From assembly GCA_002009975.1 (NCBI GenBank), contig MTLP01000042.1:1-64000 (forward strand): DNA of 64,000 nucleotides. The letters are read 5' to 3'. Position numbers and translations under genes: made by a program. The notes under the pieces are model-generated. The model did not search any database. It was not told where the DNA came from and saw only the letters and a program-made list of their open reading frames with translations. This document shows, piece by piece, positions 14,462 through 25,897 of this stretch. Source of the stretch: Thermococcus sp. JdFR-02. Lineage in GTDB: Archaea; Methanobacteriota_B; Thermococci; Thermococcales; Thermococcaceae. Every line of letters begins with the position of its first letter. Position 1 is the first letter of the stretch.

Positions 14462-14613
14462 CCTAACAATATCCTTAACAATTTAATTTGAGATATTATG
14501 TCCAACTTGATTCATTATAATGAACTGGTCCCTCCCTCAGTTCAATGATGGAAAGACTTTTAACATTGTAAACATAGTTGAAACTGCAGTCATGATAATT
14601 AGAGGTGGTTGGT

Positions 14614-15315
14614 ATGAACAGGATTGAAAAGGCAAGACAGATTATCGAAAAAGCAAAACAAGAAGGAAGAAACGCTCTTGTTGAGCCAGAAGCTAAAGAG
14701 ATACTCCAACTATATGGCGTTCCAACTCCAGAATTCAAGGTTGCTACAAATGAGGAAGAGGCAGTTAAATTTGCTCAAGAAATTGGTTATCCCGTTGTTA
14801 TGAAAATCGTTTCTCCAGATATTATTCATAAGAGTGATGCTGGTGGTGTTAAAGTCAACATTAAGAACGACGAAGAGGCAAGAGAGGCATTTAAGACAAT
14901 TATGGAAAATGCTAAGAAGTATAAGCCAGATGCTGATCTTTGGGGTGTAATTGTTTACAAGATGTTGCCTCTTGGAAAGGAAGTTATCGTCGGTATGATT
15001 AGAGATCCACAATTTGGTCCAGCTATTATGTTTGGTCTCGGTGGTATCTTCGTTGAGATTCTCAAGGATGTTAGCTTTAGAGTTGCTCCAATCACAAAGG
15101 AAGAAGCTTTGGACATGATTAAAGAAATCAAAGCCTATCCAATCTTGGCTGGAGCAAGAGGAGAAAAGCCAGTCAACATTGATGCATTGGCTGAATTCAT
15201 TGTTAAAGTTTCACAATTAGCCGTTGAACTACCAGAGATTAAAGAGCTTGATATTAATCCAATCTTTGCTTACGAAGACTCTGCAGTTGCAGTTGATGCA
15301 AGAATGTTACTCTGA
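14614..15315 (+). CDS. acdB: Acetate-CoA ligase (ADP-forming), beta subunit
   Basis: The 233-residue ATP-grasp protein closely matches Thermococcales ACD beta subunits: LVEPEAKEILQLYGVP (about residue 28), YPVVMKIVSPDIIHKSDAGGVK (about 62), and FGLGGIFVEILKDVSFRVAP near 140. With the alpha subunit it converts acetyl-CoA, ADP and phosphate to acetate, CoA and ATP, the main substrate-level phosphorylation step of peptide and sugar fermentation in these archaea. The alpha gene is not in the window, as is usual. ATG 14614 follows GAGGTGGTTGGT; an upstream TTG is less likely. Confidence 0.95.
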   Translation: MNRIEKARQIIEKAKQEGRNALVEPEAKEILQLYGVPTPEFKVATNEEEAVKFAQEIGYPVVMKIVSPDIIHKSDAGGVKVNIKNDEEAREAFKTIMENAKKYKPDADLWGVIVYKMLPLGKEVIVGMIRDPQFGPAIMFGLGGIFVEILKDVSFRVAPITKEEALDMIKEIKAYPILAGARGEKPVNIDALAEFIVKVSQLAVELPEIKELDINPIFAYEDSAVAVDARMLL

Positions 15316-15732: not shown

Positions 15733-15776
15733 AGTTATATTTTACCTGATTATGTATTTTATGATAATCTGGAGGG
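15733..15776 (+). promoter_or_regulatory. Promoter and ribosome site of the large secreted protein
   Basis: GTTATATTTT at 15735-15744 is a TATA-like element about 45 bases before the ATG, and GGAGGG at 15771-15776 lies six bases before ATG 15783. Confidence 0.45.
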
Positions 15777-15782
15777 ATATAT

Positions 15783-18203
15783 ATGAAGGGAAAATCAGCC
15801 ATAGTAATAATACTTTTCGTTATGCTTTTAGCACCAATGCTACCACAAGTAACTGCAAAACAGGAACAAATTCAAAACAGAGTTCAAAGAAACGAAAAAA
15901 TAAATCCATTCTTTGCACCCTTTTTAGAGGTATTTAAAAATATGACAGATGAGGAAAAGAAAGCTCTCCTTAACGCACTTGAGTTAATGATTAATGAGAT
16001 GATTAATGGAACAATAGTAGTCTCAGAAAACATGAAAATTATGAACATTACGTGGACTAATGAAGGCTTAAAATTCGAGCTATGGTATTTTAACAGTACT
16101 GATCCAATAAAGATTAGACATTATTTATGGAACAACCCAGAAAAAGCTCTTCATACTATAGAAAGGCTAAAAGCAGATGACAATATTACAGATTCTGAAA
16201 TTAAAGAACTTTCTGAAGACCTGAAGGTTGTTCCTCTATCAATACCCTACAGCGTTGTGATAAAGGACGTTGATTACCTAACAAATGATGGAAATGGCGA
16301 GTATGTAATCCTCTACAATCCGAGTAGCTCCTCAGCAAATATTCCAGGTTGGTACATAATGGATAGCTTTGCCTACAATAACAACGAATGCTGGAACTAT
16401 GATGGAACACCAAAAGATTCATGTAAATATTATGGTAGGGAACACATAATCAAGGTTTACGGTACAATTGTCCCGTTTGGAACATATATTGTAAAAGTTG
16501 CTTCAAGCCCGGAGGATGCTATCCTCAATAATGATGGAGATACTGTGTATTTAGTTGATTCACTGGGAAACGTTATTAGCACATACCATTATTCAGCTTC
16601 TCCTGAGATAACTGTAGAGGATATCCATTACTATCCAAGCAAACCTTCTCCCGGAACTCCAGTGGATTTCACAATAAAGCTCGATAACAGAGGAGCATTG
16701 GGAGGTGCCGGAACCCTTCAGCTTGTTATAGATGGAGAAATACTCAAAAGTGAGAGTGTTTATGTGGAAAAATACTCAATCAAGTATTTCCGCTTCTATG
16801 ATGCATGGACTGCAGAGCCTGGCACCCATGTTGTAGTTGCAAAGTTTATTCCTTCTTATTCAGGAGGGAAAGAGTCAACGGAAATTACTTGGATTTCTGT
16901 ACCCACTGTTAGCATAACCAGTGTAAATTATCCCTCCCCAGTTATTGAAGATAGGGATATTAAATTTGATGTTTTAGTCAATAATCCTGCATCTGAAAAA
17001 GTGGATGTTACCCTAAAACTGTTGGTTGATAATGAACAAAAATGGAGCTTTTCGGGATATGTATTACCTGAGCAAAGCTATCAATTCTATCTAATTTGGA
17101 AGGATCCTACACCTGAAACTCACAATGTCACTATTGAGCTCTGGGAAGATAGTGAACTCAGAGATACATGGAAGAAGACAATCTACGTGAAACCTAACTT
17201 ACCTCCAAAAATAACTAACATAACAATTCCTGAAGAAGCATATTCCGGGTATAGATTTGATGGGACAGTAACGGTGTACGACGAGGAGAGTGATGAGGTA
17301 TATGTCAGAGTCTACGTTAATGATGAGTATAAATTCACAATAGGCCCAATTACCTCTGAAGAAACTGCAAGCTACTATTATTATCCGGTGATAAACAACT
17401 GTACCAAGGAGCTTAGATTCATGTTTGTCCCAGTGGATGAGAGGGGTAACGTTGGGACACCCGAAGAGAGGACTGTCCTTGTTAAACTGGACACTGACTT
17501 TGATGGCTGGTGTGATATTGAAGAAATAGAAAAGTACAAGACAGACCCATATAAATGGGACACTGATGGAGATGGTATAAAAGATTCAAAAGATGTGGAC
17601 CCACTAACAAGGAACTTAACATTAACGGTGTATGTCTTTCGTGCAAGAGTTCTCGATCCAGTTGATGAATGGCTTTCCGCTGATTATCAGAAAGCTGATA
17701 TGACCTTGGAGATTGGAGCTAATCTCGGACATGGTAACATTGTATGGCAGAGTTTTACAATATCAGATAATCAGGATGATGCTGAGAAATCAATAATACT
17801 AACTAACGACACGCTTGTAAATATGGAGCTTCAGCAGATAGCCAAGTTTACAGTTGACATCCCAGAGTACTTTGAGTTTACATGGATTTACTTCAAGCTC
17901 TTTGACAGAGATACTCTGTCGTCTTGGGATATGCTCGATGTATCTCCAGAAAGCGGGACAGATGAGGAAGGCAAGATGGCTAAAGTTATGTTCTCTGTAA
18001 AGAGTGGTACGTGGGGCTTCCACGATTATCCAAATGATCACAAAGTTTACTTTGGCTATGGTCATCTGAGCGGTTGCGGTGATGGCTCCTGTGGTGATTT
18101 AGACTCAAGCACTGACATTGAACCATTCGTCAAGTACTACGATGAGCTTGAAGCCATGGGTTATGATTTAAGCATTGTTAACATCACAGATGCTAAAGGG
18201 TAG
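15783..18203 (+). CDS. Large secreted multidomain protein, N-terminal part, ending at an in-frame TAG
   Basis: The 806-residue product has a signal peptide (residues 1-26) and a helical segment to about residue 150. A lamin-tail-like domain follows (about 157-272, VVIKDVDYLTNDGNGEYVILYNP), then two CARDB-type adhesion domains (about 278-475) and a third beta domain. Asp-rich calcium-binding repeats come next (about 569-609, DTDGDGIKDSKDVDPL), and then a C2-like domain to about 730. The frame ends at TAG 18201-18203 but continues open directly after it into the protease domain at 18204-19658. The natural protein is therefore probably one polypeptide of about 1291 residues, interrupted here by a nonsense codon or an error. 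It would be exported and surface-attached or released, presenting a C-terminal metalloprotease. Confidence 0.75.
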   Translation: MKGKSAIVIILFVMLLAPMLPQVTAKQEQIQNRVQRNEKINPFFAPFLEVFKNMTDEEKKALLNALELMINEMINGTIVVSENMKIMNITWTNEGLKFELWYFNSTDPIKIRHYLWNNPEKALHTIERLKADDNITDSEIKELSEDLKVVPLSIPYSVVIKDVDYLTNDGNGEYVILYNPSSSSANIPGWYIMDSFAYNNNECWNYDGTPKDSCKYYGREHIIKVYGTIVPFGTYIVKVASSPEDAILNNDGDTVYLVDSLGNVISTYHYSASPEITVEDIHYYPSKPSPGTPVDFTIKLDNRGALGGAGTLQLVIDGEILKSESVYVEKYSIKYFRFYDAWTAEPGTHVVVAKFIPSYSGGKESTEITWISVPTVSITSVNYPSPVIEDRDIKFDVLVNNPASEKVDVTLKLLVDNEQKWSFSGYVLPEQSYQFYLIWKDPTPETHNVTIELWEDSELRDTWKKTIYVKPNLPPKITNITIPEEAYSGYRFDGTVTVYDEESDEVYVRVYVNDEYKFTIGPITSEETASYYYYPVINNCTKELRFMFVPVDERGNVGTPEERTVLVKLDTDFDGWCDIEEIEKYKTDPYKWDTDGDGIKDSKDVDPLTRNLTLTVYVFRARVLDPVDEWLSADYQKADMTLEIGANLGHGNIVWQSFTISDNQDDAEKSIILTNDTLVNMELQQIAKFTVDIPEYFEFTWIYFKLFDRDTLSSWDMLDVSPESGTDEEGKMAKVMFSVKSGTWGFHDYPNDHKVYFGYGHLSGCGDGSCGDLDSSTDIEPFVKYYDELEAMGYDLSIVNITDAKG

Positions 18204-19658
18204 GATGGGATTGAGAGTGTAGAGGTCAAAGATTATCAAAAAGGGAAGCTTTATCAGTATTCCAAGCCTGAAGAGGCAGTTCTATTCACCCTAGCCTTGC
18301 CAAACGGGACTGAGAGGAAGGTCTTAATAATCAATAAGAGAAACGCCAAAGTTCAGGTGCAGAACCTTCCAAGTGAAGACGTTAAACTATTGTCCACGGA
18401 TAGTGAAGCGAGTAATGGAAATATTACAGTTAAACAAAATGCAACAGTAGGAAAACGGATAAGATATGAAGCAGTCTTTATCTTCAGAGAACAGAATGAG
18501 AATGTAAAGGAGCAAGAAGTCCAAGCTTTAAGCAACAGTGAAACTGAGAACACGTCTACTGCGTTGACTTTTGATGCCTTAGGGACCTCAGAAGATGGTG
18601 ATGAAGATGACGCCGAGATATGGTTCATCATCAAGCTGAACGATGCTGATGGGGATGGAATACCATTCTACAAAGAGTTAGAGCTTAACAAAGAGCTTGA
18701 GAAGAGAGGCTACAGTAGAAGATTTGACCCGCGTAAGAACGATGCCTACGGCGACTATGACGGCGATGGAGTTCCTAATAGCGTGGAGCTGTTTATTGGG
18801 AAGGATCCGGCGAAGAGGGATATACTAGGGATAGAACTAAATATTTCAGTAGAGTGGACTATGAGCGAAGATGACAAGAAAAACTTGATCTACAGCATCA
18901 GGAAGGCCAGTGACTTCATCTACGACTACACGGACGGCTACGCCATGATAACGAAGATAAACGTGTGGGATGGGAAGAGAAATATCAAACGGGCAGATGT
19001 CTGGGTGAATGAAACGTTCCTAGAAGTCAAATTCATAGGGGACAATAAAAAGTGGCCTCAAGCAACGATTGGTGGCTACTGGACTGGAGGGAAACTCGTA
19101 ATGCCTTATAGGTTCTTACGGCCTACTCCTCCCGTTGGGATTGCAGAGCTGGGGGATGTGCAGTGGGCCCGGGCCCTCGGTCATGAGCTCGGTCACTATG
19201 TCTTCTGGCTCGGGGACGAGTATGAAGACTGGAAAGGAAGAACGTACTACTGGAATTATGGGCTAGATGGTCCCGATGTTGATACCCATGCTCCACACTC
19301 AGTCATGCATCACGAGTGGAAGTGGAGCGAGTTGAGCACCCCGAGAGATTACGAAAACTTCAAACAGTACTTAACAAATAAATACGGTGACTGGAAGCCA
19401 TACATCACGGACCAATGGGGTAACGTAACAAAGAACCCTATGACTGACTATCCAATTTGGCACTGCTCGGCATGGGAAGCACTGTTTAAGTCCTTAACGG
19501 GCCATGGCAGGCCTGAATGGACCAAAGGACCATATACCAACATTTGCATGGATTTGAATTTTGATGGAACATGTGACAGAACATTTCCACAAGAGTATAT
19601 CCCCAAAACTGGCCCGTACACTGGTGTCGGCTACTTCATGGGGGTGAACCTAAAATGA
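18204..19658 (+). pseudogene. C-terminal M64-like metalloprotease domain of the large secreted protein (after the in-frame stop)
   Basis: This is in the same frame as 15783-18203 with no start signal at the junction; the first later ATG/TTG (TTG 18297) has no ribosome site. It contains another calcium repeat (YDGDGVPNSVELFIGKDPAK, about 18755-18815) and the catalytic motif HELGHYVFWLGDEY (HELGH at 19182-19196). This HExGHxxxxLGDEY form is close to IgA-peptidase-like M64 enzymes: two His and a later Asp/Glu bind zinc and the first Glu is catalytic. The end has the hallmark PKTGPYTGVGYF followed by a GGGGGTGA sequence that serves as ribosome site of the next gene. It would be active if the TAG were read through or absent; as written it is not translated from the main start. 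Confidence 0.7.
18784..18808 (+). repeat. 25-base exact repeat, copy 1 (protease 'ELFIGKDP' hinge)
   Basis: Starting TGGAGCTGTTTATTGG and ending AAGGATCC, this block is identical to 21068-21092 although the flanks differ in many third positions. It encodes ELFIGKDP, just before the protease domain, and is a plausible crossover site for exchanging protease tips. Confidence 0.75.
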
Positions 19659-20602
19659 GACGGGTTTTCATTTCCATTTTCCTTTCGCTCGTGCTCTTAA
19701 CAGGCTTCCTTGCATACAACGCTTACACTTACCACGAGCTCAGCTCAGCGGAAGGAGCTTACAAGCTTGCTGTAATCCCAGAGAAAGAGAAACTCATTGC
19801 TGTCTACCACGGTGACAACCTCTGGCAGTTCGCGACCTACGATGAGGAAACGAACACGCTAAAGCTTTACAATTTAAAACAGTCCTCAATCCTCGATCTC
19901 AAGGACAGGAGTGTCGAAAAGATCAAAGCGATGCTCAACTACTCTCCTCTCACACTCGACCCAAAACTCCTCAAAGAGTACACGCCTCATACCCGTGCTC
20001 TTCTCTTTAAACCCCTCGGCTGGAAATACGATAATGAGATCAGCGGCTCGTACTGGAGAAACTTGAGTGAGGTGATAAAGCCCGGGGAAGAGTACTACAA
20101 GATTTATGGCGTGGGAACGAGCAGGAAACTCTGGATAAAGCGGAAGGAAGTCTGTGAAAAAGCCAGCATCTTCGCCCATGATTACGTTTGCTATGGGTAT
20201 ATTGGAGTGAGTGGTATTCTCGTGATCCCAGGGTACGAGGGTGAAAGAATGCTCTGGGTGATAGAGAAGCCCCATGATAACCAAACCGAGATGATCGCTT
20301 ACTACCCGGGCATCACACTGAAGAAAACCAAGACACCAGAAGAAAACCAAAAACCACGCAACTACACTGGAGAGGACGGTAAAATAATCCTTGAAATGCT
20401 AAACAAGTTGAAGGGAAACAAAACGGAATACGTGCAGATTGTCCTGTATGAAAAGCTAAAGAGACTCCCCGGATACCGCGGACTTGGGTGGTCTCTCGGG
20501 TCAGGAGGCTACTGCCACGTTGAAGCATGTTGCAAGGATTTAGCACAAATAAACATTTCAAAACCCTGGTGCGTTTCCCGCTGGAGGCTTCGAGATGACT
20601 AA
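19655..20602 (+). CDS. Membrane-anchored extracellular protein coupled to the metalloprotease (possible immunity/inhibitor)
   Basis: The ATG overlaps the protease stop (ATGA) and its ribosome site GGGGGTGA lies inside the protease 3' end, so the two are tightly coupled. The 315-residue product has one N-terminal membrane helix (about residues 4-23, VFISIFLSLVLLTGFLAY) and an extracellular remainder with several Cys near residues 161-175 and 289-304. No family was recognised. Membrane-anchored small proteins right after a secreted toxin-like enzyme are typical of immunity proteins, but a chaperone, inhibitor or substrate role is equally open. Base composition looks richer in G+C than the neighbouring chromosome. 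Confidence 0.65.
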   Translation: MRRVFISIFLSLVLLTGFLAYNAYTYHELSSAEGAYKLAVIPEKEKLIAVYHGDNLWQFATYDEETNTLKLYNLKQSSILDLKDRSVEKIKAMLNYSPLTLDPKLLKEYTPHTRALLFKPLGWKYDNEISGSYWRNLSEVIKPGEEYYKIYGVGTSRKLWIKRKEVCEKASIFAHDYVCYGYIGVSGILVIPGYEGERMLWVIEKPHDNQTEMIAYYPGITLKKTKTPEENQKPRNYTGEDGKIILEMLNKLKGNKTEYVQIVLYEKLKRLPGYRGLGWSLGSGGYCHVEACCKDLAQINISKPWCVSRWRLRDD

Positions 20603-20640: not shown

Positions 20641-21118
20641 ATGAAAAAAGCTTTGGTAATGTTCAGCATTTTCCTCTTCCTTTTGCTCGTTTCCTACTAC
20701 TATCTACCAGCCTACAGCATGACTGAACTCTATCAAAAAAATTCCAGAAAAAGTTCGGGAAGATTCACAACTCATAGCCGCTTATTACTCCCCGAAAACA
20801 GGCTTTGGAGGCTTAGAGAAGAACACAATAACCTGCAAGACTCAATTCAACTACTTGATAATGAAGACAAACCCAGAAAAAATCAAAGAACTCACAAACT
20901 GCGATAACTGTCAAATCCTCCTGTACTTAGACAAAATCTACCAAAACAGCGAAATTGAAACCCTATATCTCCCAATCGAACAAGTACTCAAAAACAAACA
21001 AAACACAATCTATATTGAACTCACCTTTATCAAAGATTGCGAACTCTCATCAGAGCCAAAACAGTGTTGGAGCTGTTTATTGGGAAGGATCCTGCAAAGC
21101 CAGATGTTCTCGGAATAA
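20641..21118 (+). pseudogene. Frameshifted, 3'-truncated membrane-anchored partner protein
   Basis: ATG 20641 follows GAGGTGAGCTGGAG. The first 33 residues give a signal/anchor (MKKALVMFSIFLFLLLVSYYY) and YSMTELYQK, then a run of seven A (20734-20741 region) puts the reading out of frame. With one A fewer, the frame would continue as KIPEKVREDSQLIAAYYSPK and stay open for about 95 further residues, through a Cys-rich stretch (NCDNC, QCWSC). It then runs out of frame into the protease hinge at 21068. The gene thus looks like a partner protein with a homopolymer frameshift whose 3' end was replaced by the next cassette. The beginning is loosely similar to the partner at 19655 (LIAVY versus LIAAY). 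Slippage on A7 could restore expression. Confidence 0.65.
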
Positions 21119-22023
21119 AACTGACGGTTGCCGTCGGATTTAATGCCAGCCAGGATTATCTCACAAAGCTCGTCAAGGGCTTCCAGAGGGCGAGTCAGGT
21201 GGTTTACGATTACACGGATGGGTATGCGATGATAACGGAAATCAGCATAAAGAACAACGTGCCCGAGGGGAGCGAGGAATGGGAGGAATCGATGATAGTA
21301 ATCCACAGCAATGAATCCAAAAAATTATACACAGATACTCCAATAATTCCCCACAATCCGGAGGAACCAGCGTCGAGCTGGGTGATTCCTATACCTGGGT
21401 ATTGGCTATGGTTTAAAACAGAAGAACAAAACAATTCAAAGCCCCACGTCCATCTTTATAAGATATACAGGGGAACATATCCAGATTCTAAAGTATACTA
21501 TGGAGGCATTGCTCATGAGTTAGGACATTTTGTCTTTGCATTGGGTGACGAATACATCACAAAGAACATATACAACATTAAAGCCGGCGAATATAAACAC
21601 CTGTACTATGACACTATAATATCGCTTTGTGGATTCAAGAACTTTACAAAGCTACCCACTATTATGGAAGCAGGAGATAAAATGACAGAATTGAGTACTC
21701 CCCAAGATTACATAGAATTCAACAACCAACTCATTAATTATTATCAACAGATTAGGGAGGTCTTGGTTCCTCTGGGATGGAACATAACAAAATGGGACGA
21801 CTTAATAACTAGTCACTTGGGCGATAATCGATACTTCTATAATGGAGCACTTCATGAGAATTTATCCGGATGGGAAGTGTTAGTGGCAATTATGAATTAT
21901 ACCGAATTTAACTATGTCAACACCACGAGGATACAGATTGACATCGATGCAAAAAAGCATATCCCCTTCGTAGGCCCATACACAGGCGTCGGATATTATC
22001 TTATAACTAGACTACAGGGGTGA
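21037..22023 (+). CDS. 5'-truncated M64-like metalloprotease tip (second cassette)
   Basis: The open frame of 328 codons enters the protease domain at the shared hinge LELFIGKDPAK (21068-21092). It then follows the first copy: YDYTDGYAMITEI, HELGHFVFALGDEY (HELGH at 21514-21528), STPQDYIEF, and the end GPYTGVGYY. All catalytic residues are kept. It has no signal peptide, no calcium repeats upstream, and only TTG 21037 or GTG 21064 as starts, with no ribosome site. It is therefore a displaced tip that would work only after recombination onto a complete N-terminal part. Its divergence from copy 1 suggests a different specificity rather than a recent duplication. Confidence 0.65.
   Translation: MRTLIRAKTVLELFIGKDPAKPDVLGIKLTVAVGFNASQDYLTKLVKGFQRASQVVYDYTDGYAMITEISIKNNVPEGSEEWEESMIVIHSNESKKLYTDTPIIPHNPEEPASSWVIPIPGYWLWFKTEEQNNSKPHVHLYKIYRGTYPDSKVYYGGIAHELGHFVFALGDEYITKNIYNIKAGEYKHLYYDTIISLCGFKNFTKLPTIMEAGDKMTELSTPQDYIEFNNQLINYYQQIREVLVPLGWNITKWDDLITSHLGDNRYFYNGALHENLSGWEVLVAIMNYTEFNYVNTTRIQIDIDAKKHIPFVGPYTGVGYYLITRLQG
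21068..21092 (+). repeat. 25-base exact repeat, copy 2 (cassette junction)
   Basis: Identical to 18784-18808. On its left is the broken partner gene 20641, in a different frame; on its right is the second protease tip. It therefore coincides exactly with the point where two unrelated sequences join. Confidence 0.75.
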
Positions 22024-22028
22024 CCACA

Positions 22029-22952
22029 ATGCCAAAAAGGTCACTAATACAATATTTGTTCTTTTTAGTTTTTGTAATTTTAGCACTAATGCTTATAGTT
22101 TCACCCCAAGATAACAGGCCCTCAGGTGTTCCCCAAGAACTTTCTCCCTATGATGCATACTTATTATTTGCAAAGCCATGCGCAGAGAACTGGAGTGCTG
22201 ATGCCGTTCTAATCGAAGCGGAATTTATAGAGCCTCCCGCGGGGAAATGGGAACCTACTGATGGACAGCTCTACAAGCCACCATTAGAGATAGTTCAGGA
22301 ATCCAAATTCAACAACGGCCGTTCACACCTCCATGTATTCACATTCTATTTCCCCTCAAAAAAGGAGCTCCTGCTGTTAACTGTTTACGTCACAAACACG
22401 ACTAAAAAATGGGATGTGCTGGAAATATCCAAGCAGACTCCCATGGATTATTCTTCATTCAAAGTCCTTCCAGAGAGGCTCCAGGGAGTTCCCAACACTA
22501 CTCATGCAATCTTGTTCCTTGGGGAATGGCATGAAGTTGCCGATATCGGCTCTCCCAAACTAGCGGAGAACCTTACAGTTATGGAGGTCACAGTTTGGGA
22601 TACGAAGCACACTTCTATTGATGAGGGAATCCTGATTCCGATAAGAGCGGTTTTGTATAGACTTCCCAACGGCACGATTATAGTCAACTATCCAGGAGGG
22701 GTAAAGGTATCAACCAAGGCGGGTATTCCTCCCGGATTAACAACATTCAAGCTCAATAGTAGCGTTATTGCCACGTTTGAAAAGATAAGAGAAGGCTGGC
22801 ACCGCAGTGGAATAGAAAAATACGTGATAACATCAGAAACCATCAAGGGTTTCAGGCTCACAAGACTGAGTGGGCCGGGGCTCAATATCAAGGAGTGTAC
22901 GGTTAGAATCGGTAATCTATCAACAGCCAAATGTTATGGAACTCAGAGTTAA
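22029..22952 (+). CDS. Membrane-anchored extracellular partner protein of the second cassette
   Basis: The 307-residue product has an N-terminal membrane helix (LIQYLFFLVFVILALMLIV) and an extracellular beta-rich domain. GGGGTGA, which includes the protease stop, lies five bases before ATG 22029; a GTG at 22020 is the alternative. The motif QTPMDYSSFKVLPERL (about residues 139-154) recurs in the next protein as QPTPFDYSKFAITPKML, so the two are diverged paralogs. Function unknown; immunity or inhibitor of the coupled protease is the working inference. Confidence 0.65.
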   Translation: MPKRSLIQYLFFLVFVILALMLIVSPQDNRPSGVPQELSPYDAYLLFAKPCAENWSADAVLIEAEFIEPPAGKWEPTDGQLYKPPLEIVQESKFNNGRSHLHVFTFYFPSKKELLLLTVYVTNTTKKWDVLEISKQTPMDYSSFKVLPERLQGVPNTTHAILFLGEWHEVADIGSPKLAENLTVMEVTVWDTKHTSIDEGILIPIRAVLYRLPNGTIIVNYPGGVKVSTKAGIPPGLTTFKLNSSVIATFEKIREGWHRSGIEKYVITSETIKGFRLTRLSGPGLNIKECTVRIGNLSTAKCYGTQS

Positions 22953-22977: not shown

Positions 22978-24000
22978 ATGATTCCCAAGAGTCCAAAAAT
23001 CGCCCTTCTCTTCTTTATTATCACCGTAAGTCTTGTCTATTTCAAAATGCATTCACAAGAAAACCAAGAAACTCCCTTTGAACTTACAGCATTTGAGGTG
23101 TATACCAACATTATACAAGATGAAATAAAACGTTGGGACAAGCACGCTGTAATTATCGCAGTTCAAGGAATTGACTACAAATACCCCGTGAGGATTCCCC
23201 AAGAGACTATAAGCAACGAATTCATAACCAGCTCAAAAATTCCCACTAAAACCCTTCTTGACTACAAAGCACCATCTTGGATTTTTGTTCTATACTCAAA
23301 ACAGAGAAAAGAACTTATGTGGATTGAGGCGGCTATCTTAAAGGATCGCGCTAATAAAGAAGCGTGGAAAATTGTCAAAATAATCCAGCCAACTCCATTT
23401 GATTACTCAAAATTCGCAATTACACCTAAAATGCTGGAAAGAAATACAAGCTGGAAAATTTTGAAATCCTCCAATGGAGTTTCATACTTTGTCTCAAATC
23501 TTAAGCTACCAAATATAACGTCCAACACGACAATGATAGCAAAAGAGATTAGGGTGCTTTATTCACAGTTTCTGATTATCAATGTGCCAGTTCATGACTC
23601 GTATTTGAGTTCAAAATTCAAATTCGAACCTATTACAGGAGTCGTAGTTCTTCCGGACAAGAAGAGTTATGGCGTGGTAGTTCAAATAATTCCATGTATA
23701 CAATACCTGGAACTTTCAAGCCCGAAATTAGTTCTTCTGCTCTATAATGAAACTCACGATAGAATACTTGCAGAATATGCCAGAGCCGTATTGGAGGGGA
23801 CTGTACTAAAAACTGAGAGCAAACGAACTTCTCTTACCATTACAAGCCCTGTGCCTAGTAATGTGCATCAAGCCGAAACCATGATTAAAGAAGATTACAT
23901 AGTGTCCCACTACTGGATTGACATCATAAGGGAAGGGTTCTGTGAGGGTTCTGAGGATTACAAATGCAGGGACATTAACTACGAGTGGGTGAGGGATTAG
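22978..24000 (+). CDS. Second membrane-anchored extracellular partner protein, paralog of the preceding gene
   Basis: The 340-residue protein begins with a membrane anchor (ALLFFIITVSLVYF). It shares with its neighbour the order W-x-(K/A)-(H/D)-AV(I/L)I near the start, an ELxxIxAxxLK-type strand, and PFDYSKFAITPKML near residue 140. GGAGGTGA lies nine bases before ATG 22978; a longer frame upstream overlaps the previous gene and is rejected. The downstream stop abuts a short protease remnant. It may have belonged to a cassette whose protease tip was lost. Confidence 0.65.
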   Translation: MIPKSPKIALLFFIITVSLVYFKMHSQENQETPFELTAFEVYTNIIQDEIKRWDKHAVIIAVQGIDYKYPVRIPQETISNEFITSSKIPTKTLLDYKAPSWIFVLYSKQRKELMWIEAAILKDRANKEAWKIVKIIQPTPFDYSKFAITPKMLERNTSWKILKSSNGVSYFVSNLKLPNITSNTTMIAKEIRVLYSQFLIINVPVHDSYLSSKFKFEPITGVVVLPDKKSYGVVVQIIPCIQYLELSSPKLVLLLYNETHDRILAEYARAVLEGTVLKTESKRTSLTITSPVPSNVHQAETMIKEDYIVSHYWIDIIREGFCEGSEDYKCRDINYEWVRD

Positions 24001-24001
24001 A

Positions 24002-24175
24002 ATGCTTACAAGATGGCATACGTTAAGCTACAACGGTGTTTACAACGTGGATGCGGGCATCTACCTTGACCTGGACTTTGATGGTGTAGCAGACTATGAA
24101 CTCCCCAAGGGATACATACCCAAAGTCGGCCCATACATAGGAGTCGGCCAATACATGATCATCCAATGGGGGTGA
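24002..24175 (+). pseudogene. 3' remnant of a metalloprotease tip (third cassette)
   Basis: An open stretch of 57 codons ends LDLDFDGVADYELPKGYIPK then VGPYIGVGQYM. It aligns with the last 35 residues of the protease at 19658 (MDLNFDGTCDRTFPQEYIPK, TGPYTGVGYFM). The catalytic part is absent. The final GGGGGTGA again supplies the ribosome site of the next gene, so the protease-partner junction is preserved although the enzyme is gone. Confidence 0.7.
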
Positions 24176-24180
24176 AGAAT

Positions 24181-24894
24181 GTGAGAATTGTCTCTTTCTC
24201 GGTCTCTATTCTTATCCTTCTCCTTTTAACATCACTCCCCGTTAATGCGGTGAGTATTTGGGATGGTCTCGTCGACAGGCCCATTTACTACATTAACATT
24301 GAAGGTTACAGTCTTACAGGAGCTCCACCATGGAACCCATTTAACGATTCCTCAATAACACGGATCAACATCGGATATTCATACAACGAAACACACACAT
24401 TCAATAAATACTATGAGAACGGAATATGGAAAGAAGGATTCTACCTCAAACACCAAAACCCCAAACCATTCACCCTCTCCGACTGGAACCTTTCAAAAGT
24501 TCTTGAAGAGTACCAGTGGGGCGTTGAGAAATACCTGCCCAACATTACCGGGAAATTTGCGGCTGGAGAATGGAAAAAGGGCTACTGGAACAGCTCAATA
24601 GCCCGGTGGAATGTAATAATCAACGCACACCAACTCAAAATAACCCTCAACACCATGGCCAGTGAAGGCTCAGGAGAATTCGATGAATACATTACCTTCG
24701 AATGCTGGCGGAATGAAAGTAATGTAACGTGCAAATGGAACAAACCAGTCTTCAAACTCTACCCCAGCCGGCCACCAATAGGAAAAGACACAACAACAAG
24801 CACGACAAAAGAGGAAAACAAAACCTGCGGGCCAGCTTTGCTGGTTGGATTAGCATTAGTTCCTATATGGGTTAGGAGGTGGCATAAGAGGTGA
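24181..24894 (+). CDS. Secreted protein with CGP-CTERM anchor (cassette partner)
   Basis: Translation probably begins at GTG 24181, five bases after GGGGTGA. The 237-residue product has a signal peptide ending VNAVS, a mature domain starting SIWDGL, and a Thr-rich stalk. At the C-terminus is CGPALLVGLALVPIWVRRWHKR: the CGP-CTERM pattern of Cys-Gly-Pro, a hydrophobic stretch and a basic end, which is known in Thermococcaceae as a surface-anchoring signal processed by an archaeosortase-like system. The domain is paralogous to 25140-25757 (FNDSSIT-x-(I/V), YSYN(E/Q)TH, DW(N/D)L). Function unknown. Confidence 0.7.
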   Translation: MRIVSFSVSILILLLLTSLPVNAVSIWDGLVDRPIYYINIEGYSLTGAPPWNPFNDSSITRINIGYSYNETHTFNKYYENGIWKEGFYLKHQNPKPFTLSDWNLSKVLEEYQWGVEKYLPNITGKFAAGEWKKGYWNSSIARWNVIINAHQLKITLNTMASEGSGEFDEYITFECWRNESNVTCKWNKPVFKLYPSRPPIGKDTTTSTTKEENKTCGPALLVGLALVPIWVRRWHKR

Positions 24895-25139: not shown

Positions 25140-25757
25140 ATGAAAAGATTGTTCATAACAATTTTTCTTTTTTCCTTGGTATTAACCCCAGCTACTCACT
25201 TCCTAAAGGCAGTTAGTCTATGGGACGTGCTAGAAGAAAATCAAAGCATTAAGTATATCCTCATTGATGGAGCTGGCCCAAATATCCCAACTAATCTATT
25301 CAATGATTCTAGCATTACGAAAGTGAAAGTAATATATTCATACAACCAAACTCATGATATCCTTGTAGAGTACACAAAAAATAGAACAACCAAAAGAATG
25401 ATTCCTACAAAGAACATCAGCCCCTTTAGGATTTCAGACTGGGATTTAGACGCATTTCTGGAAAAATACCATGAACACATCAAGATATACGATAACGCTC
25501 CCATCAAGAAATGGACTCTTGAAATTACAAATTTCGACATTGGTGTAACAGTGTTCATGGATGATGGAGTTTACAGTGAGTTTGACTGCTACGGACCAGA
25601 AAACCTTTCATGTTATTCCCAATTCCACTCCCCCAGGAAATACACACCAAACAACACGACAACACCCATCACAACAAAAAAGAACAAGAAAATCTGCGGG
25701 CCGGCTTTGTTGGTTGGGTTAGTTTTGATTCCTGCATTAACAAGAAGGAGGAAATGA
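25140..25757 (+). CDS. Secreted protein with CGP-CTERM anchor, paralog of 24181
   Basis: The 205-residue product has a signal peptide (LFITIFLFSLVLTPATHFLKA) and a SLWDVL start. Internal similarity to the protein at 24181 includes LFNDSSITKVKVIYSYNQTH and FRISDWDLDAFLEKY. A Thr-rich stalk leads to CGPALLVGLVLIPALTRRRK, a CGP-CTERM signal. AGGAGGGATCACA precedes the ATG. Its stop overlaps the start of the next protease remnant. Confidence 0.7.
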   Translation: MKRLFITIFLFSLVLTPATHFLKAVSLWDVLEENQSIKYILIDGAGPNIPTNLFNDSSITKVKVIYSYNQTHDILVEYTKNRTTKRMIPTKNISPFRISDWDLDAFLEKYHEHIKIYDNAPIKKWTLEITNFDIGVTVFMDDGVYSEFDCYGPENLSCYSQFHSPRKYTPNNTTTPITTKKNKKICGPALLVGLVLIPALTRRRK

Positions 25758-25897
25758 GGTGGAGCAGAAAACAGCTAGAAGTTCCAATCAGTCATACTCC
25801 AAAGGTTGGCCCATACACAGGAATCGGCTACTACATGACAGTGAAGATTAACGTTAAAAGACTTACAGAATATAACATGTACCTTTTGTTAAAGTGA
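25754..25897 (+). pseudogene. 3' remnant of a metalloprotease tip (fourth cassette)
   Basis: The 47-codon frame overlaps the preceding stop by ATGA and contains PKVGPYTGIGYYM, the conserved protease end, followed by an unrelated basic tail. The catalytic region is absent. It marks the right edge of the array; ordinary chromosomal genes begin at 26021. Confidence 0.6.

What the first reader, a model, noticed from the sequence alone, without database searches (positions are those of the whole stretch)
18201..18203. In-frame TAG inside an otherwise continuous 1291-codon gene
Frames 15783-18200 and 18204-19658 are identical in phase, and the codons immediately after TAG read as sensible protein (DGIESVEVKDYQKGKLYQYS). 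No start signal lies at the junction. So the protease domain is separated from its secretion signal by a single stop codon. It could be a recent nonsense mutation, a consensus error, or a readthrough/phase-variation point.
Basis: seen in the sequence. Interest (0 to 1): 0.65.

Follow-up and report, generated by a model that had tools for sequence, protein, structure and literature searches.

The report
Nonsense stop in swappable archaeal protease
The stop codon is real in this sequence and replaces a tryptophan found in every comparable homolog, so it most likely switches off a large secreted protease; the more interesting fact is that this protease belongs to an apparently undescribed modular gene system of heat-loving archaea whose catalytic ends are exchanged between species and whose signal peptide is often shifted in or out of frame by a run of Gs.

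Summary
Confirmed: TAG at 18201-18203 cuts an open frame (15783-19658) after 806 codons; the next 484 codons stay open and encode a conserved HExxH protease. The TAG column is tryptophan in all 10 homologs of the same N-terminal subtype, one transition away. TAG is an ordinary stop here, with no CUA tRNA or PylS found and no good restart site. Best reading: a recent lineage-specific nonsense mutation; a consensus error cannot be excluded without reads. It is not a repeat-based switch point.
The gene itself is more unusual. It is a chimera, switching relatives at residues 985-1000, where 25 bp recur exactly 2284 bp downstream; a displaced C-terminal protease module begins at that second copy. 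In Thermococcaceae, one long secreted protease with a variable C-terminal module heads an array of secreted or CGP-CTERM-anchored genes; the neighbouring gene family matches the module type. The layout resembles a polymorphic toxin-immunity system. In nine relatives a G7-G9 tract lies at the signal peptide, in frame in 3 and out of frame in 6, suggesting phase variation. This window lacks that tract. Toxin function is inferred, not shown.

The parts
15771..15776 (+). Shine-Dalgarno-like GGAGGG upstream of ATG 15783
   Evidence: sequence
15783..18200 (+). N-terminal 806 codons: signal peptide by eye, Lamin Tail Domain (residues 157-271), Ig-like stretch resembling other surface proteins, Ca-binding-like DTDGDG repeats
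18201..18203 (+). In-frame TAG at the column that is Trp in all same-subtype homologs
18204..19658 (+). Same frame continued: 484 codons with type I HExxH metalloprotease module (module about 18783-19655)
18784..18808 (+). 25-bp direct repeat, copy 1 (codes for the conserved VELFIGKDP); recombination junction
19655..20602 (+). acc1: family A secreted accessory gene, overlapping the protease stop by 4 nt; Shine-Dalgarno 19640-19647 lies inside the protease tail
20641..21066 (+). Broken family A accessory gene: frameshift near an A7 run (20735-20741) and 3' end missing
21068..21092 (+). 25-bp direct repeat, copy 2, 2284 bp from copy 1
21067..22023 (+). Orphan type II protease C-terminal module, without signal peptide or N-terminal part
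22029..22952 (+). acc2: accessory gene with hydrophobic leader (ORF 22020-22952), 91% identical to one in G064
22978..24000 (+). acc3: accessory gene, family C
23999..24172 (+). Remnant of a protease C-terminal tail carrying the Shine-Dalgarno of acc4
24181..24894 (+). acc4: family B accessory gene with CGP-CTERM anchor (TIGR04288); start codon chosen by eye
25140..25757 (+). acc5: family B accessory gene with CGP-CTERM anchor
25736..25849 (+). Remnant of a protease C-terminal tail, end of array

Best explanation
TAG 18201 is a recent nonsense mutation at a conserved tryptophan codon of a secreted, modular metalloprotease gene. Shown: the TAG, the conserved Trp, the intact frame on both sides, and absence of repeats at the site. 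Inferred: translation ends at codon 806, giving a secreted surface protein without its catalytic module, so the genome's only full-length copy is off. The downstream accessory genes acc1 to acc5 remain open (a sixth, at 20641-21066, is broken), so a cell could keep the presumed protective genes after losing the protease. The gene is itself recombinant: a foreign type I catalytic module with family A accessory genes entered at the conserved VELFIGKDP codons and displaced the older type II module downstream. The family looks like a polymorphic toxin-immunity system in organisation, and in relatives is probably phase variable through a G tract at the signal peptide.
For: Column 807 is Trp in 10 of 10 same-subtype homologs; the other subtype has a 3-residue gap there. 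The post-TAG frame deviates from near-invariant columns no more than intact copies do (3 of 85; intact copies 0 to 10 of 88), and a neutral frame would be expected to gain another stop by about 0.04 substitutions per site. TAG ends 14 of 55 window ORFs; no CUA anticodon among 43 tRNAs; PylS only far below its cut-off. Chimera: N-part tree rejects {win, L070, L051} with p-AU 3e-67; C-part tree joins them 97/89; identity to L070 goes from 30/17/57% to 85/83/77%; GC3 rises from about 0.35 to about 0.55. Exact 25-bp repeat flanks the insert. Type I modules are followed by family A in 12 of 12 cases and type II modules never. G7-G9 tracts at the signal peptide.
Against: No reads and no second strain were available, so a consensus error is not excluded. 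No close relative exists in the held data to measure selection after the TAG. The protective role of the accessory genes and any toxicity of the protease are untested. Within family A the immediate neighbour does not strictly follow the protease (WIN versus L070/L051), and the module-accessory correlation is only moderate (Spearman 0.14-0.47).
Confidence: 0.72

Rival explanations
1. Consensus or assembly error: the genome really has the tryptophan codon and the protease is intact.
For: Draft assembly in 44 contigs; one-base difference from the family state; downstream frame shows no decay; all other long copies in the family run through this position.
Against: A single G-to-A substitution is not the typical assembly error, there is no homopolymer at the site, and the genome is 99.99% complete by markers. 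The gene family decays elsewhere too (G074; frameshifted accessory gene).
Confidence: 0.17
2. Translational readthrough or suppression of the TAG makes both an 806-residue and a full-length form.
For: Downstream frame is preserved.
Against: No CUA tRNA among 43 found, no PylS, TAG is a common terminator in the window. No homolog keeps a stop at this place. tRNA-Trp was not among the 43, so the tRNA set is slightly incomplete.
Confidence: 0.04
3. The downstream half is made separately from an internal start, giving a cytoplasmic or leaderless protease piece.
For: GTG 18783 lies at the module start with a weak GGAG about 12 nt upstream; orphan modules elsewhere also exist as separate frames.
Against: No strong Shine-Dalgarno; no signal peptide, so the piece would not be secreted; orphan modules look like displaced remnants.
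Confidence: 0.04
4. The TAG is a selected reversible OFF switch (phase variation) at this site.
For: The family does appear phase variable in relatives, at a G tract.
Against: No repeat, homopolymer or inversion site at 18201; a point substitution reverts rarely.
Confidence: 0.03

Closest known systems
VARTIG, hypervariable module of Thermococcales (PMC8416519)
   Same: Thermococcales only; a large secreted protein first in an array, variable C-terminal region exchanged between species, shorter genes homologous to the C-terminal end, downstream secreted or membrane genes that go with C-terminal subfamilies
   Different: There the variable part is an Ig domain with no enzyme found and recombination sites not located; here it is an HExxH protease module with a defined junction motif, CGP-CTERM accessory genes and G tracts. 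Whether any locus is shared with that paper's islands was not checked.
Polymorphic toxin systems (PMC3482391)
   Same: Constant N-terminal part plus exchangeable C-terminal domain, displaced orphan modules, type-matched genes directly downstream
   Different: All modules here are one metalloprotease family rather than unrelated toxin folds; accessory proteins are secreted or anchored; no toxicity or immunity shown
Peptidase M64 (IgA peptidase)
   Same: HExxHxxxxxxDEY motif region; weak profile match (PDB 9ekk E 0.0095, Pfam best E 0.0055)
   Different: Below Pfam's cut-off; the rest of the domain does not match; structure prediction failed
Phase-variable G-tract contingency genes of bacteria (PMC11868660)
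   Same: G7-G9 tract in the signal-peptide region of a surface/secreted protein, lengths that put the rest in or out of frame
   Different: Archaeal; seen between species, not within a population; absent in this window's gene

Membership tests
Polymorphic toxin system | Exchangeable C-terminal module on a constant N-terminal part | tested here: met
   N and C trees disagree, switch at residues 985-1000; caveat: holding the W-type rows without L067 together on the C part gave p 0.058
Polymorphic toxin system | Orphan C-terminal modules downstream | tested here: met
   WIN 21067-22023, and L067, L071, L074, L076
Polymorphic toxin system | Type-matched gene directly downstream | tested here: met
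   Type I followed by family A 12 of 12, type II by B, C or H or an unclassified gene, never A in 11; genomes are related, so p values are rough
Polymorphic toxin system | C-terminal domain is toxic and the neighbour protects | not testable with these tools
   needs experiment
VARTIG | arCOG07710 protein with hypervariable C-terminal Ig domain | tested here: not met
   C-terminal module is an HExxH protease domain; arCOG membership itself could not be searched
Peptidase M64 | Match above Pfam gathering score | tested here: not met
Peptidase M64 | HExxH zinc site with M64-like fold | tested here: inconclusive
   motif conserved in all modules; models of pLDDT 36 and 42 are unusable
Phase-variable contingency gene | Long homopolymer in the 5' coding part with lengths giving both frames | tested here: met
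   In relatives: 3 in frame, 6 out of frame; all 7 G runs of 8 or more in 358 kb lie there. Not met in the window gene itself
Phase-variable contingency gene | Length changes within one population | not testable with these tools
   one genome per species held
Stop-codon readthrough / Pyl insertion | Suppressor tRNA(CUA) and PylS | tested here: not met

The most novel reading that the evidence does not exclude
Thermococcaceae carry an undescribed conflict system: a secreted metalloprotease whose catalytic module is swapped between species by recombination at the VELFIGKDP codons, with surface-anchored protective proteins encoded next to it, and whose secretion is switched on and off by slippage of a G tract at the signal peptide. 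This would be an archaeal polymorphic toxin system under homopolymer phase variation. The window shows a copy silenced by nonsense while most of its accessory genes stay intact.
Probability: 0.4. Interest if true: 0.75.

Novelty: new variant of a known kind. Interest (0 to 1): 0.5.

Why it matters
The stop codon alone is an ordinary gene loss. The family around it would give Thermococcales a variable secreted module with an actual enzyme domain, which was the missing piece in the VARTIG proposal. It also names a recombination junction that can be tested, and would be a rare candidate for homopolymer phase variation in archaea; a 2025 review of phase variation mentions archaea only as a future extension (PMC11868660).

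Tried and rejected
Structure prediction of the type I and type II modules gave pLDDT 36 and 42, so no fold search was made. Viral contigs and plasmids hold no relative. Readthrough was tested through tRNAs and PylS and found unsupported. The genome-contig scan found four relatives, three of them already held as genomes, and no second strain. No paper describing this protease array was found in eight searches of open-licence papers; the main review of archaeal polymorphic toxins was not held. The 25-bp repeat was not found in G061, where the longest shared run is 11 bp, so that displacement is older or different.

Full report
Observation. ATG 15783 opens a frame that stops at TAG 18201-18203 and stays open in the same phase to the TGA at 19656-19658. 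The 484 codons after the stop would be open by chance about once in 1e12 by composition, and they align over their length with homologs whose frame is continuous.

The stop. In an alignment with 19 homologs the stop sits in the motif GWDGIE: the column is Trp in all 10 homologs of that subtype, while the other 9 lack three residues there. TAG is therefore one transition away from the family state. The post-TAG frame keeps the HELGH...DEY site, and deviates from near-invariant columns as little as intact copies do. If it were drifting neutrally, a further stop would be expected by roughly 0.04 substitutions per site, so the change is recent, tolerated, or an error. TAG is used as a normal stop in 14 of 55 window ORFs. 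Forty-three tRNAs carry no CUA anticodon; tRNA-Trp was not among them, so the set is not quite complete. PylS matches only far below its cut-off. The site has no repeat or homopolymer.

What the protein is. The N-terminal 806 residues hold a signal peptide (by eye), a Lamin Tail Domain, an Ig-like stretch and Ca-binding-like repeats. The C-terminal module is a putative metalloprotease with weak similarity to M64 IgA peptidases. The module was found in 21 of 94 Thermococcaceae genomes and in none of 17 other genomes of the phylum held.

The gene is a recombinant. Upstream of residue 985 the window protein belongs with the Trp subtype; downstream it belongs with L070 and L051 from the other subtype (identity table). 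Trees agree: on residues 601-985 joining the window with L070 and L051 is rejected (p-AU 3e-67), while on residues 999-1196 they group with 97/89 support. One test was borderline: holding the Trp-subtype rows without L067 together on the C part gave p 0.058. GC3 rises from 0.35 upstream to 0.5-0.6 in the module and 0.58 in acc1. The junction DNA, 25 bp at 18784-18808, recurs exactly at 21068-21092, where an orphan type II module begins. The simplest reading is that a type I module with family A accessory genes was inserted there and pushed the old module downstream. G061 (L067) shows the same order, type I in the gene and type II displaced, without the long repeat.

The array. In relatives one long protease is followed by up to six or more secreted accessory genes plus orphan modules or short tail remnants. 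Type I modules are followed by family A in 12 of 12 cases; type II by families B, C or H (in the window by acc2, unclassified), never A, in 11. Family B proteins in the window end in CGP-CTERM anchors. Forty-one of 42 module ends or tail remnants carry a Shine-Dalgarno-like sequence for the next gene, which would explain why tails survive as remnants. Within type I, module and neighbour identity correlate only moderately. This is the layout of polymorphic toxin systems and of VARTIG (PMC3482391, PMC8416519). Toxicity and immunity are inferred.

A switch in relatives. Nine relatives carry G7-G9 at the signal peptide or just after it: in frame in L064, L067 and L053, out of frame in L052, L066, L071, L072, L074 and L075. 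All seven G runs of eight or more in 358 kb of fetched loci lie there, and such runs number only about one to ten per genome. A third in frame is what a freely slipping tract would give. Some tracts are related by descent, and assembly errors in homopolymers could change lengths, so phase variation is likely but not shown. The window gene has no such tract.

Verdict. The stop is most likely an ordinary, recent inactivation of one copy, or a consensus error. The system it lies in is a new variant of a known kind and deserves attention.

Noticed in passing
L052:3663, L053:4045, L064:4478, L066:4153, L067:3510, L071:5015, L072:4381, L074:4673, L075:3497 (loci oriented with the protease on +): G7-G9 tracts at the signal peptide of homologous proteases, 3 in frame and 6 out of frame: candidate phase variation.
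   Followed up: partly
L124, L126, L138, L139, L141, L148, L152, L156, L159, L161: Other G8+ tracts in Thermococcus-like genomes lie just before the ATG of predicted secreted proteins, over the Shine-Dalgarno, some with a similar upstream sequence; L131 and L151 have G8 inside signal peptides. Possible wider set of switchable surface genes.
   Followed up: partly
window 20641-21066: Second family A accessory gene is frameshifted near an A7 run (20735-20741) and fused into the orphan module.
   Followed up: partly
window 23999-24172 and 25736-25849: Short remnants of the protease C-terminal tail precede or end accessory cassettes; the same occurs in many relatives, nearly all carrying the next gene's Shine-Dalgarno.
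   Followed up: yes
L051, L052, L066, L068, L070: In several relatives the array lies next to the indolepyruvate ferredoxin oxidoreductase alpha gene; in others next to an acetyl-CoA synthetase beta gene as in the window (14605-15315): favoured chromosomal sites.
   Followed up: partly
L068 (G074): A heavily decayed copy of the same protease with several stops and frameshifts.
   Followed up: no
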